This document shows positions 5,565 through 8,780 of a DNA stretch of 32,971 nt, one piece after another. The first letter of the stretch is position 1; every line of letters starts with the position of its first letter. This DNA comes from Candidatus Hydrogenedentota bacterium (GTDB taxonomy: Bacteria > Hydrogenedentota > Hydrogenedentia > Hydrogenedentales > SLHB01). The stretch is from assembly GCA_020847495.1 (NCBI GenBank), contig JADLCA010000446.1:1-32971 (forward strand), in the 5' to 3' direction. The position numbers were made by a program, and so were the translations under genes. The notes beneath the pieces were generated by a model. That model worked only from the letters and a program-made list of their open reading frames with translations, had not been told where the DNA came from and did no database searches.

Positions 5565-8500
5565 ATGAACGATACGGTCCGGGTTGATCTGCACCTGCAT
5601 TCATCCCGCAGCGACGGCGAACTTGCGCCTGAAGCGCTCGCGCGAAAGGTAGCCGACAGCGGTGTGGTTTTCGCTGCCCTGACCGACCACAACACCTTCG
5701 ACGGCACCGAGGAATTCCGCGAGGCCTTCGCCCGCTGCGGAGGGGTTGCTATTCCCGGGCTCGAATTGACGGTCGAATGCGAAGGCACGACGGCCCATCT
5801 GCTGGTCTATGGCGTGTCCCCGTCGGAACCCGCCCTGCGCGCACTATGCCAAAAGCCTGCTCCCCTCGCGGTGGCGCTCGACGCGGTGCACGCCGCGGAC
5901 GGCATCGCCTTTCTCGCCCACCCGCTCCACACTTGGCAGGACATCAACGCGTTGCGTCCAGTTCTTCAGCGTGCCGCGGAGACTGGGCTGGATGGCATCG
6001 AAGCACGATACGGCCAGTACTCGAAAAGCGATCAGGACGCGCTCACCGCTCTTGCAGAAAGCTTCGGATTGCTTGTGTGCGCAGGCAGCGACTACCACGG
6101 ACCCAAGCAGGGAAACGACTGCAGGCCCGGGGTGGATCTCGAAATCGCCCGGTGGAAGCAATTCCGGTCCGTCTTGCCCGCGTTTCGCCAAACCCATGAA
6201 CCTGCGCCACCCCGGTTCGTACACGCGCACGCCCCCGTGGGGCTTCGTGACCGGTATTGGTTCCTGCTGCACATCGTGGTGCCCGCCTTCCTATGCATGA
6301 TGCTCTTCGTGGGTGCCATCTTTGCCGTCATCCTGCCCGCCTTCGAGGACCAACTCCTCCAGCGCAAACGGGAGATGATCCGCGAACTCGTCAACTCGGC
6401 GTGGGGCATACTGGATGCGGGCGAGCGGGACGTCCGCGCGGGCCGTACCACCCTCGAGCAGGCTCAGCGCGACGCCATCGAGCGGTTCCGGCGATTGCGG
6501 TACGGTCAGGAGGAAAAGGACTACTTCTGGATTACCGACATGCATCCGCGAATGGTGATGCACCCCTACCGGACCGACTTGGAAGGACGCGACCTCACGG
6601 ACATGACCGACCCGCAAGGCGTGCGGTTATTCGTCAGGTTTGTGGACGAGGTTCGCGCGTCCGGCCATGGATACGTGGCCTACGTATGGCAGTGGAAGGA
6701 CCAGCCCGAACACCTGGCCCCCAAGGAATCCTATGTTCGCGGATTTGCCCCGTGGGGCTGGGTGATCGGCACGGGCATCTACCTCGACGATGTCAACCGG
6801 GAGATTGGGGTCATCAAACGGCGCATGCTCGAGATCGCCATGGCCATCGCCGTGGTCATGTGCGCCCTTCTGGCGCTGCTGATCCTCGAAGGGCGCCGTC
6901 TCGAGCGCCGCAGGCGCCAAGCCGAGGAGGATCTGCGCGAATCCCACGAGCGGTACCGGGCCCTGGTCGAGGGGGACCGCGACGGCACCCTCGTCCTCGT
7001 CGGGGGCCGCTGCGTGTATGCCAATGGGGCCTTGCTCGAAATGCTGGGATACAGCGAGCATGAACTGCCTTTCGTGGACTGGGATGACCTGGCTGCGGAT
7101 GCCGGTGAGGCGCTGCCCGGATTGCCCGACGCCCAGGCAGAAACGCCGCACCACGCAGTCGAAGGGGACCCGTTCGAGGCCCAGCTTCGGCGCAAGGACG
7201 GCTCGCTTGTCGAGGTGCTTCTGACGGCCAGTCCCATTTCCATGGGAGGGCGGGCGGGCGTGCTGTTGCTGGTGCGCGACCTCACTGAACACGCGGCCTG
7301 GCGCCGGCGCGAACGGGCCGAGCGCGAAGAACTGCGCGATCGGCTGGAGGCAACGTGGCTGCTGCTCAACCAGCCCATCAGCGCCGGTATGCGGCCCGTG
7401 CCGGTCTGCTCTCTCGACACCCGTATTGAAGACGCGGTAGAACTGATGATGGACGCGTCGAGCGACGCTCTCGTTGTCACAACGGAAAGCGGCGCAACCG
7501 CCGGCATCGTGACGGACCACGATTTCCGTGTCCGGGTGGTGAGGACGCGCCATCCTGTTGCAAATTCGATCTGCGAAATCATGACTGCTCCCGTCGAGAC
7601 CATTTCCGAAGACGCCCTGGTCTGCGAAGCGCTGCAGCTCATGGGTGAGCAGCAGCGCAACCACCTCGTGGTAGTCGATTTCCAAGGGAAACCGGCGGGG
7701 ATCGTCGGCGGCGCGCACCTGACGCATACCCTCAACTACCCGCCAACAGCGCTGAACGCATCGGTTGCGAGAGCCTTGAATGTGGCGGAGGTGAAACGCG
7801 CCCGCGGGCGGCTGCCCTTCGTCGTGCATTCCCTGCTTGAAGCCGGCACCCGTCCACGCACGGTCGCTCGCACCGTAACGGGCGTTTCGGGCCAGATTGT
7901 AGGCCGCCTGCTGGAACTGGCTGCCCGCGACATGGGTCCGGCGCCACTGCCTTACGCCTGGATGGCCTTCGGAAGCGAGGGCCGTGAAGAGCAGACCCTG
8001 GTCACCGATCAGGATAACGCCCTGGTATACGCCGACCCGGACCCGGATGCCGCGGGCGCCGCGGAAGAGTACTTCCGTCGCCTGGCTGAGCGGGTCTGCG
8101 CGCAACTCGACGACATAGGATATGCCCGCTGCAAAGGGGGCATGATGGCCGATAACCCGCGCTGGAACGGCCCGCTGTCGCATTGGAAGACAGAGTTCAC
8201 CCGGTGGATCGCCGAACCGGACCCGCATGAACTGCTCCAGTGCAACATCTGCTTCGACCTGCGCTGCATCCACGGCGAGTCAGGCCTTGTCGGAGAGCTG
8301 CTCCAGCATGTCTTGGTTCAAGTGCGAGGCCGGTCTTCGTTCTTCTACAACCTGGCGCATTCGATCCAGGAGGCGCGCCCCTCTCTCGGGGTTCTCGGCC
8401 ATATCCGCACGGACACCTCGTCCGGCGCGCGCAACGCGGTCAACCTCAAAGCGGTTCTGCTCCCGCTGGTCGGGTTCGCGCGCCTCTACGCCTTGCGCAA

Positions 8501-8780
8501 TGGCATCTCCGAAACCCACACCATCGACCGCTTATACGCCCTTCTGGACCGCCGGGTTCTGAGCCCGCAACTTGTACGCGACCTCGAACAAGCGTACGAC
8601 CTCATCATGGCCTTGCGGTACCGGGGTCAAGTGGCCGCTCTCGCTGCCGGTGATGCACCAACGAACGACGTCGTTCCTGAGACGTTGAGTGCCATGGAGT
8701 TGGAGACGCTCAAACTGGCCTTGAACACCATCGCCTTCTTGCACCGGAAACTCGAGACGGACCGTAACGCCGGCATGTGA
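5565..8780 (+). CDS. Multidomain signalling protein: PHP + TM + sCache_2-like + TM + PAS + CBS pair + DUF294 nucleotidyltransferase + DUF294_C
   Basis: PHP: DLHLHSSRSDG, TDHNT, PGLELTV, FLAHPLH, CAGSDYHG. Cache: FRRLRYGQEEKDYFWITDMHPRMVMHPYRTDLEGRDLTDMTDPQGVRLF...KESYVRGFAPWGWVIGTGIYLDDV, flanked by TM segments YWFLLHIVVPAFLCMMLFVGAIFAVIL and AMAIAVVMCALLALLIL. PAS: YRALVEGDRDGTLVLVGGRCVYANGALLEMLGYSEHEL. CBS: DALVVTTESGATAGIVTDHDFR... and NHLVVVDFQGKPAGIVGG. NTase: GSEGREEQTLVTDQDNALVY. ATG at 5520 is an alternative start. Confidence 0.88.
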   Translation: MNDTVRVDLHLHSSRSDGELAPEALARKVADSGVVFAALTDHNTFDGTEEFREAFARCGGVAIPGLELTVECEGTTAHLLVYGVSPSEPALRALCQKPAPLAVALDAVHAADGIAFLAHPLHTWQDINALRPVLQRAAETGLDGIEARYGQYSKSDQDALTALAESFGLLVCAGSDYHGPKQGNDCRPGVDLEIARWKQFRSVLPAFRQTHEPAPPRFVHAHAPVGLRDRYWFLLHIVVPAFLCMMLFVGAIFAVILPAFEDQLLQRKREMIRELVNSAWGILDAGERDVRAGRTTLEQAQRDAIERFRRLRYGQEEKDYFWITDMHPRMVMHPYRTDLEGRDLTDMTDPQGVRLFVRFVDEVRASGHGYVAYVWQWKDQPEHLAPKESYVRGFAPWGWVIGTGIYLDDVNREIGVIKRRMLEIAMAIAVVMCALLALLILEGRRLERRRRQAEEDLRESHERYRALVEGDRDGTLVLVGGRCVYANGALLEMLGYSEHELPFVDWDDLAADAGEALPGLPDAQAETPHHAVEGDPFEAQLRRKDGSLVEVLLTASPISMGGRAGVLLLVRDLTEHAAWRRRERAEREELRDRLEATWLLLNQPISAGMRPVPVCSLDTRIEDAVELMMDASSDALVVTTESGATAGIVTDHDFRVRVVRTRHPVANSICEIMTAPVETISEDALVCEALQLMGEQQRNHLVVVDFQGKPAGIVGGAHLTHTLNYPPTALNASVARALNVAEVKRARGRLPFVVHSLLEAGTRPRTVARTVTGVSGQIVGRLLELAARDMGPAPLPYAWMAFGSEGREEQTLVTDQDNALVYADPDPDAAGAAEEYFRRLAERVCAQLDDIGYARCKGGMMADNPRWNGPLSHWKTEFTRWIAEPDPHELLQCNICFDLRCIHGESGLVGELLQHVLVQVRGRSSFFYNLAHSIQEARPSLGVLGHIRTDTSSGARNAVNLKAVLLPLVGFARLYALRNGISETHTIDRLYALLDRRVLSPQLVRDLEQAYDLIMALRYRGQVAALAAGDAPTNDVVPETLSAMELETLKLALNTIAFLHRKLETDRNAGM

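What the first reader, a model, noticed from the sequence alone, without database searches (positions are those of the whole stretch)
5565..8780. Single polypeptide joining a PHP phosphoesterase domain to a Cache/PAS/CBS/DUF294 nucleotidyltransferase receptor
Seen directly: PHP motifs (DLHLHSSRSDG, TDHNT, E in PGLELTV, HP, SDYHG) look intact. They precede a TM-sCache-TM module and then PAS, CBS-CBS and a GSEGREEQ...TDQD nucleotidyltransferase. The topology is coherent: PHP and NTase would be cytoplasmic and Cache periplasmic. Established: DUF294 NTases resemble the GlnD UTase fold, and GlnD couples a transferase to an HD-type removing activity. Inference: PHP could be the 'eraser' and the NTase the 'writer' of a nucleotidyl modification on a partner (possibly the adjacent symporter), gated by an extracellular small-molecule signal and by adenine nucleotides through CBS. 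I do not recall this exact architecture being described, but I could not search for it.
Basis: partly seen in the sequence, partly recalled or inferred. Interest (0 to 1): 0.82.

Follow-up and report, generated by a model that had tools for sequence, protein, structure and literature searches.

The report
Membrane sensor carrying writer and eraser
One bacterial membrane receptor carries both an enzyme domain likely to attach nucleotides to a partner protein and a phosphoesterase likely to remove them; related systems fill the remover slot with at least three other, unrelated enzymes, which suggests a widespread and undescribed reversible switch on acid-transport systems.

Summary
Window 5565-8780(+) is one intact 1071-aa protein: PHP, TM, sCache_2, TM, PAS, CBS-CBS, DUF294 nucleotidyltransferase (NTase), DUF294_C. 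It is not an artefact or a one-off: 118 of the 119 other listed homologues carry PHP and DUF294 together, and all PHP metal ligands and the NTase GS...DxD residues are invariant among 29 of them. AlphaFold2 and Foldseek place the PHP half with RNase AM and the NTase half with protein AMPylases (GlnE, DrrA).

The new evidence is comparative. Homologues without PHP usually have a calcineurin-like phosphoesterase gene beside them (35/60 loci, always same strand; 0/20 for PHP-bearing genes). One Spirochaetota clade carries an endonuclease-IV-like TIM barrel in the PHP position. Classical CBS-DUF294 loci carry a DnaQ-like 3'-5' exonuclease (14/15). So at least four unrelated metal-dependent phosphoesterase folds occupy the same slot, usually near an acetate-type sodium symporter.

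The chemistry, the target and the direction of regulation remain untested. No paper in the library searched describes this architecture or the swapping. Verdict: a new variant of the known but functionally unassigned CBS-DUF294 kind.

The parts
5565..8780 (+). PHP-TM-sCache_2-TM-PAS-CBS2-DUF294-DUF294_C receptor, 1071 aa
   Evidence: single ORF, Pfam, 118 of 119 other listed homologues with PHP + DUF294
5580..6179 (+). PHP metal-dependent phosphoesterase domain (residues 6-205), cap-less RNase AM-like fold
   Evidence: Pfam PF02811; AF2 pLDDT 93.7; top PDB hit RNase AM 7ug9, E 5.8e-18; all metal ligands
6258..6335 (+). first transmembrane segment (about residues 232-257)
   Evidence: hydropathy
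6360..6806 (+). periplasmic sCache_2 ligand-binding domain (residues 266-414)
   Evidence: Pfam PF17200, 8e-37; PDB 4k08 match, 8.6e-34
6828..6893 (+). second transmembrane segment (about residues 422-443)
   Evidence: hydropathy; basic residues (RRLERRRR) follow it, as expected for a cytoplasmic side
6948..7295 (+). PAS domain (residues 462-577); many homologues carry a second PAS
   Evidence: Pfam PF13426, NCBIfam TIGR00229
7413..7730 (+). CBS pair (residues 617-722)
   Evidence: Pfam PF00571, 2 stretches; Foldseek matches to CBS pairs
7812..8225 (+). DUF294 nucleotidyltransferase domain (residues 750-887); GSEGREEQTLVTDQD motif at 7971-8015
   Evidence: Pfam PF03445, 2e-49; invariant catalytic residues; GlnE/DrrA fold
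8337..8759 (+). DUF294_C helical substrate-binding domain (residues 925-1065)
   Evidence: Pfam PF10335, 2e-33
3845..5461 (+). SSF sodium:solute symporter, ActP/MctC-like, 538 aa; candidate target
   Evidence: Pfam PF00474, 3e-72; NCBIfam ActP subfamily below cut-off; SSF near 18 of 20 PHP-bearing genes
3545..3841 (+). DUF485/DUF4212-like small membrane subunit, 3 bp before the symporter gene
   Evidence: Pfam PF04341 17.8 bits, below cut-off

Best explanation
The protein is a membrane-bound, self-contained nucleotidylation switch. The periplasmic Cache domain (probably reading a small carboxylate), the cytoplasmic PAS and the CBS pair gate two opposing cytoplasmic enzymes. The DUF294 NTase transfers a nucleotide, most likely AMP, onto a partner protein (writer). 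The PHP domain hydrolyses the nucleotide-protein phosphodiester and takes it off again (eraser). The first candidate partner is the neighbouring symporter or its small subunit. Shown here: the architecture, conservation of both active sites, the folds, the symporter neighbourhood, and the repeated filling of the phosphoesterase slot by PHP, endonuclease-IV-like, calcineurin-like or DnaQ-like enzymes. Inferred: that the NTase acts on protein, that the phosphoesterase reverses that same modification, the identity of the target, and the signal. My split: antagonistic writer/eraser pair about 0.6; protein substrate given that about 0.75; symporter or its small subunit as target about 0.3.
For: Both active sites are invariant across deep divergence. 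The best full-domain PDB matches of the NTase half are GlnE adenylyltransferase (1v4a 2.4e-8; 3k7d) and DrrA (6yx5 3.1e-7), all protein AMPylases. The PHP half matches RNase AM and CV1693. Phosphoesterase slot: calcineurin-like genes beside 35 of 60 PHP-less homologues and 0 of 20 PHP-bearing ones (Fisher 9e-7), all on the same strand, 31 of them within 172 bp. ORFs with the metallophosphoesterase motif: 27 of 149 adjacent ORFs versus 0 of 599 elsewhere in the same loci, although the genomes examined hold only 6-22 such genes each. The neighbours fall into at least five subfamilies with no mutual BLAST link at 1e-8. An AP_endonuc_2 domain sits in the PHP position in one Spirochaetota clade. 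A DnaQ-like 3'-5' exonuclease lies in 14 of 15 readable classical CBS-DUF294 loci. One homologue, P0113, has lost the CBS pair but keeps both catalytic ends. Precedents: RNase Z, a ribonuclease, is a protein deAMPylase (PMC12663964), and SidD, a metal-dependent phosphatase fold, deAMPylates the DrrA/SidM product (PMC12409994).
Against: No activity of any DUF294 protein is known to me, and none turned up in the papers searched. 25 of 60 PHP-less loci show no detected phosphoesterase; some contigs are short, but several Bacteroidota loci with long flanks truly lack one nearby. PHP presence is close to a single acquisition on the tree, so the PHP/MPE exclusivity rests on few independent events. 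In 12 of 18 PHP-bearing loci the symporter is convergent, not co-transcribed, and 9 of 29 PHP-less loci with at least 4 kb on both sides have no symporter within 6 kb. Deleting the related Pseudomonas fluorescens gene pflu5625 had a negligible effect on growth in acetate (PMC5715377).
Confidence: 0.45

Rival explanations
1. Messenger turnover: the NTase makes a small nucleotide or oligonucleotide signal and the PHP (or DnaQ, MPE, EndoIV-like) enzyme degrades it; the effector is elsewhere.
For: All four phosphoesterase types include nucleases or nucleotide hydrolases, and the nearest PHP relatives act on short RNA or pAp. The Pol-beta superfamily includes messenger synthases (own knowledge).
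Against: The best full-domain structural matches are protein AMPylases, not oligonucleotide synthases. The DUF294_C substrate domain belongs with the GlnD/GlnE C-terminal domains (PMC3710099). No candidate effector recurs in the loci except the symporter.
Confidence: 0.2
2. RNA-directed pair: the NTase adds nucleotides to an RNA end and the nuclease-like partner trims them or removes caps.
For: RNase AM is a 5'-3' exoribonuclease with deFADding activity and DnaQ-type enzymes are 3'-5' exonucleases.
Against: The RNase AM insertion domain, which helps form the 5'-phosphate pocket (R107, R110, R141; F161 stacks on the base; PMC9410882), is absent here. The enzyme is a membrane receptor by a symporter, with no RNA-binding domain found by Pfam.
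Confidence: 0.1
3. The PHP domain is an ordinary phosphatase for a soluble metabolite (for example pAp or another nucleotide), fused for co-regulation by the same sensor and not an antagonist of the NTase.
For: PHP enzymes include nucleoside bisphosphatase CV1693, the best sequence match.
Against: A single metabolite substrate does not easily explain replacement by calcineurin-like, DnaQ-like and EndoIV-like enzymes at the same locus.
Confidence: 0.2
4. The architecture is an assembly or sequencing artefact, or the PHP domain is dead.
For: The source is a fragmented genome assembly (800 contigs).
Against: 118 of the 119 other listed homologues carry both domains, from many assemblies; all metal ligands are invariant; the model is confident.
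Confidence: 0.01

Closest known systems
CBS-DUF294 (cNMP-binding/CBS/NTase) proteins beside ActP-type symporters, e.g. Pflu5625 of the CrbS/R acetate regulon and the Pseudomonas aeruginosa PA3232-PA3235 cluster (PMC5715377, PMC9765439)
   Same: DUF294 and DUF294_C with a CBS pair; DUF485/DUF4212 plus SSF neighbours in most loci examined here; a phosphoesterase (DnaQ-like exonuclease) in the locus
   Different: The window protein is membrane-bound with a Cache/PAS input in place of the cNMP module, and the phosphoesterase is a fused PHP domain instead of a separate DnaQ-like gene
GlnE glutamine synthetase adenylyltransferase/adenylyl-removing enzyme
   Same: NTase fold plus helical C-terminal domain (1v4a, 3k7d); writer and remover on one chain
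   Different: GlnE uses two NTase domains (PMC12663964); here there is one NTase and an unrelated PHP phosphoesterase, and the protein is a transmembrane receptor
GlnD uridylyltransferase/uridylyl-removing enzyme
   Same: Writer and remover of different folds on one chain (own knowledge), the closest functional analogy
   Different: GlnD removes with an HD domain and senses through ACT domains (own knowledge); Pfam GlnD_UR_UTase is below cut-off here (17.5 vs 21 bits)
RNase AM (YciV/TrpH) and CV1693 nucleoside bisphosphate phosphatase
   Same: Same PHP fold and all metal ligands
   Different: Insertion (cap) domain that helps form the 5'-phosphate pocket is missing; R201 is replaced by H122; scores far below NCBIfam cut-offs (97 vs 400 and 80 vs 375 bits)
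SelO/RNase Z and DrrA(SidM)/SidD writer-eraser pairs
   Same: An AMPylase opposed by a metal-dependent phosphoesterase or nuclease of another fold
   Different: Other folds; no sensor domains; not fused

Membership tests
DUF294 nucleotidyltransferase (PF03445 + PF10335) | Both domains above the curated cut-off | tested here: met
   167.4 vs 21 bits and 115.8 vs 22.5 bits
DUF294 nucleotidyltransferase (PF03445 + PF10335) | NTase GS...DxD catalytic motif | tested here: met
   G803 S804 D815 D817 invariant in 80 of 80 aligned
PHP superfamily phosphoesterase | PHP profile above cut-off and full set of metal ligands | tested here: met
   34.6 vs 26.4 bits; all ligands
RNase AM / nucleoside bisphosphate phosphatase equivalogs | NCBIfam equivalog cut-off | tested here: not met
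   NF041577 97.2 vs 400; NF047791 80 vs 375
RNase AM / nucleoside bisphosphate phosphatase equivalogs | Insertion domain contributing the 5'-phosphate pocket | tested here: not met
   query 93 aligns to 90 and query 99 to 171 of CV1693, so the insert is missing
GlnE | Two NTase domains on one chain | tested here: not met
   one DUF294 domain only
GlnE | Adenylylation and deadenylylation activity | not testable with these tools
   needs biochemistry
GlnD | HD remover domain and ACT sensors | tested here: not met
   no HD or ACT match in Pfam scan
Writer/eraser nucleotidylation system (functional kind) | NTase and phosphoesterase in one protein or locus | tested here: met
   PHP fusion here; MPE, EndoIV-like or DnaQ-like elsewhere
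Writer/eraser nucleotidylation system (functional kind) | The two activities act on the same bond | not testable with these tools
   needs biochemistry
ActP acetate symporter (neighbour gene) | NCBIfam equivalog cut-off | tested here: not met
   TIGR02711 278 vs 1099 bits, so the substrate is not assigned

The most novel reading that the evidence does not exclude
CBS-DUF294 systems are a widespread class of reversible protein nucleotidylation switches on carboxylate symport systems, in which the eraser is modular and has been recruited at least four times from unrelated phosphoesterase folds. The window protein would be the version with receptor, writer and eraser on one chain, and its PHP domain would, to my knowledge, be the first PHP enzyme shown to remove a nucleotide from a protein.
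Probability: 0.33. Interest if true: 0.87.

Novelty: new variant of a known kind. Interest (0 to 1): 0.73.

Why it matters
CBS-DUF294 NTases are common and have long been predicted to modify proteins; PMC5715377 cites Aravind and Koonin 1999 for the Pol-beta-like family. No substrate or eraser turned up in the papers searched. The recurring exchange of phosphoesterase folds at the same locus gives the missing half of the hypothesis and tells an experimenter which gene to pair with the NTase. A version with both halves on one chain makes the question testable with a single construct, and would link an extracytoplasmic small-molecule signal directly to protein nucleotidylation.

Tried and rejected
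Artefactual fusion: rejected. Degenerate PHP: rejected, ligands invariant. RNase AM membership: rejected, cap domain missing and curated scores not reached. Defence system: no PADLOC match; phage collection gave one 7% match only. Direct fusion of DnaQ to DUF294: a search with an artificial join of the two Vibrio proteins listed only unfused DUF294 proteins, so none found, though the list covered mostly close Vibrio relatives. Whole genome as file: not available. Dedicated promoter in the 103-bp gap before the gene: none found by a sigma-70 scan, whose single hit in the region was at chance level. Papers: no paper held contains both DUF294 and PHP domain, and none of the 15 papers with DUF294 describes this architecture by title or abstract; the one read on DUF294 (PMC3710099) gives only domain classification. 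Aravind and Koonin 1999 is not held.

Full report
1. What is there. Window 5565-8780 on the + strand is one 1071-aa frame. In order it holds PHP, a hydrophobic segment, sCache_2, a second hydrophobic segment, PAS, two CBS repeats, DUF294 and DUF294_C. Upstream on the same strand lie a DUF485-like small membrane protein (3545-3841) and, 3 bp later, an SSF symporter (3845-5461); 103 bp separate the symporter from the receptor gene. The symporter resembles ActP/MctC but stays below their curated cut-offs, so its substrate is not assigned.

2. Both active sites look alive. E. coli RNase AM binds three Mn ions with His13, Glu72, Asp255, His83, His198, Asp20, His45 and His257 (PMC9410882). These map to H10, E67, D176, H78, H119, D17, H42 and H178; H12 is the second His of the HxH motif. 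All are invariant in 29 diverse homologues. The NTase residues G803, S804, D815, D817 and D898 are invariant in all 80 members aligned. The PHP model has mean pLDDT 93.7 and its best PDB match is RNase AM. The CBS-NTase model has pLDDT 90.5; its best full-domain matches are GlnE and DrrA, both protein AMPylases. The PHP domain lacks the insertion that helps form the 5'-phosphate pocket of RNase AM, so its active site should be more open than that of RNase AM (inference).

3. It is a family. Of the 119 other proteins listed in the protein search, 118 carry PHP and DUF294 by Pfam; many have a second PAS domain. The remaining one, P0113, still shows the PHP motifs in the alignment and has lost the CBS pair. 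In the window's own phylum only 4 of 68 held genomes give a strong match, and only the window's genome has the complete protein; one partial match, L092, starts at a contig end. Members occur in Spirochaetota, Chloroflexota, Latescibacterota, Acidobacteriota and Aminicenantes, which suggests horizontal spread.

4. The phosphoesterase slot. The genome scan returned homologues with PHP (20, window included) and without (60). Those without PHP are Cache-PAS-CBS-DUF294 proteins, mostly about 820-860 aa. Beside 35 of the 60 lies a calcineurin-like metallophosphoesterase gene, always on the same strand (in two Elusimicrobiota loci it follows the symporter gene); beside the 20 PHP-bearing genes there is none (Fisher 9e-7, not corrected for relatedness). 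Among ORFs of at least 150 aa, the metallophosphoesterase motif occurs in 27 of 149 adjacent ORFs and 0 of 599 others. Fourteen of these genomes hold 6-22 Metallophos genes each, so chance adjacency would be rare. PHP-bearing genomes have such genes too, just not here. The neighbours fall into five groups plus one singleton that do not link to each other by BLAST at 1e-8, and lie upstream in Bacteroidota but downstream in Verrucomicrobiota and Proteobacteria. That points to several recruitments.

5. Two further fillers. In a Spirochaetota clade (L132, P0122, P0123) an AP_endonuc_2 TIM barrel sits in the PHP position, fused to the same Cache-PAS-DUF294 chain; on the tree it is a separate, fully supported clade. 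On annotated plasmids, classical CBS-DUF294 genes come as DUF4212/DUF485 - symporter - DUF294 - (small gene) - 3'-5' exonuclease in Alphaproteobacteria, sometimes beside acs; 14 of 15 readable loci have the exonuclease, including Vibrio and Hymenobacter plasmids without the adjacent symporter pair. Pfam confirms RNase_T. A Desulfobacter locus has a PAS-RNase_T gene 2 kb from a Cache-DUF294 gene.

6. Interpretation. Four unrelated metal-dependent phosphoesterase folds attached to the same NTase are most simply explained by a need to hydrolyse what the NTase makes. The AMPylase-like fold makes a protein-AMP bond the first guess. Precedents exist for such erasers: RNase Z removes AMP placed by SelO (PMC12663964), and SidD, of a metal-dependent phosphatase fold, removes AMP placed by SidM (PMC12409994). 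The symporter is a plausible target because it lies near 18 of 20 PHP-bearing genes, and the two exceptions lie near contig ends. It is not proven: in most Spirochaetota loci the genes are convergent. A nucleotide messenger remains possible.

7. Limits. PHP presence is nearly a single event on the tree (1 change in 72% of bootstraps; 3 in the quick tree), so PHP versus MPE exclusivity is not many independent observations. The strength lies in the number of different folds and subfamilies. The tree used incomplete MPE labels: L021, L048, L071 and L072 were added later. Twenty-five PHP-less loci have no detected phosphoesterase.

8. Known or new. The CBS-DUF294-symporter association and the prediction of nucleotidylation are known: Pflu5625 belongs to the CrbS/R regulon and its deletion had negligible effect on growth in acetate (PMC5715377), and PA3232-PA3235 is induced on propionate (PMC9765439). 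In the open-access library searched I found no report of the PHP-fused receptor or of the exchange of phosphoesterases. I therefore call it a new variant of a known but functionally unassigned kind.

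Noticed in passing
L132 1489-4842 (-), proteins P0121-P0123: Endonuclease-IV-like (AP_endonuc_2) TIM barrel fused N-terminally to Cache-PAS-DUF294 in Spirochaetota, in the same position as PHP.
   Followed up: yes
L040 11361-12260 (-): ARMT1-like damage-control phosphatase gene directly beside a second Cache-DUF294 gene on the same strand; possibly another filler of the eraser slot.
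   Followed up: partly
L049 14131-15009 (-): Stand-alone AP_endonuc_2 protein about 1.2 kb from a PHP-less Cache-DUF294 gene, on the opposite strand.
   Followed up: no
L031, L037, L038, L044 (Bacteroidota): Conserved set: about 250-aa DUF4212-type subunit with a long N-terminal extension, SSF, TPR membrane protein, then Cache-DUF294, with no phosphoesterase detected.
   Followed up: partly
L003-L015 (mostly Spirochaetota): Symporters beside PHP-bearing genes are about 690-700 aa, some 150 aa longer than the window's 538-aa symporter; the extra part was not identified.
   Followed up: no
L033 and genome G085 (Desulfobacter latus): Six DUF294 matches in one genome, three to four of them clustered Cache-DUF294 genes.
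   Followed up: no
L086 8098-9760: DnaQ-like exonuclease gene beside DUF294 interrupted by an IS5-type transposase gene in Paracoccus alcaliphilus.
   Followed up: no
L054 3829-5280 and L081 1880-3358: DUF3360 putative transporters beside Cache-DUF294 genes that lack an SSF hit within 6 kb, so the partner transporter may vary.
   Followed up: no
window 8862-11885 (-): One protein joining a right-handed beta-helix region to a C-terminal FGE-sulfatase (formylglycine-generating-like) domain.
   Followed up: partly
window 24661-26724 (+): DUF4838 protein; with Gfo/Idh, Amidohydro_2, FAD-dependent oxidoreductase and sugar transporter genes it suggests a polysaccharide or sugar catabolic region.
   Followed up: no
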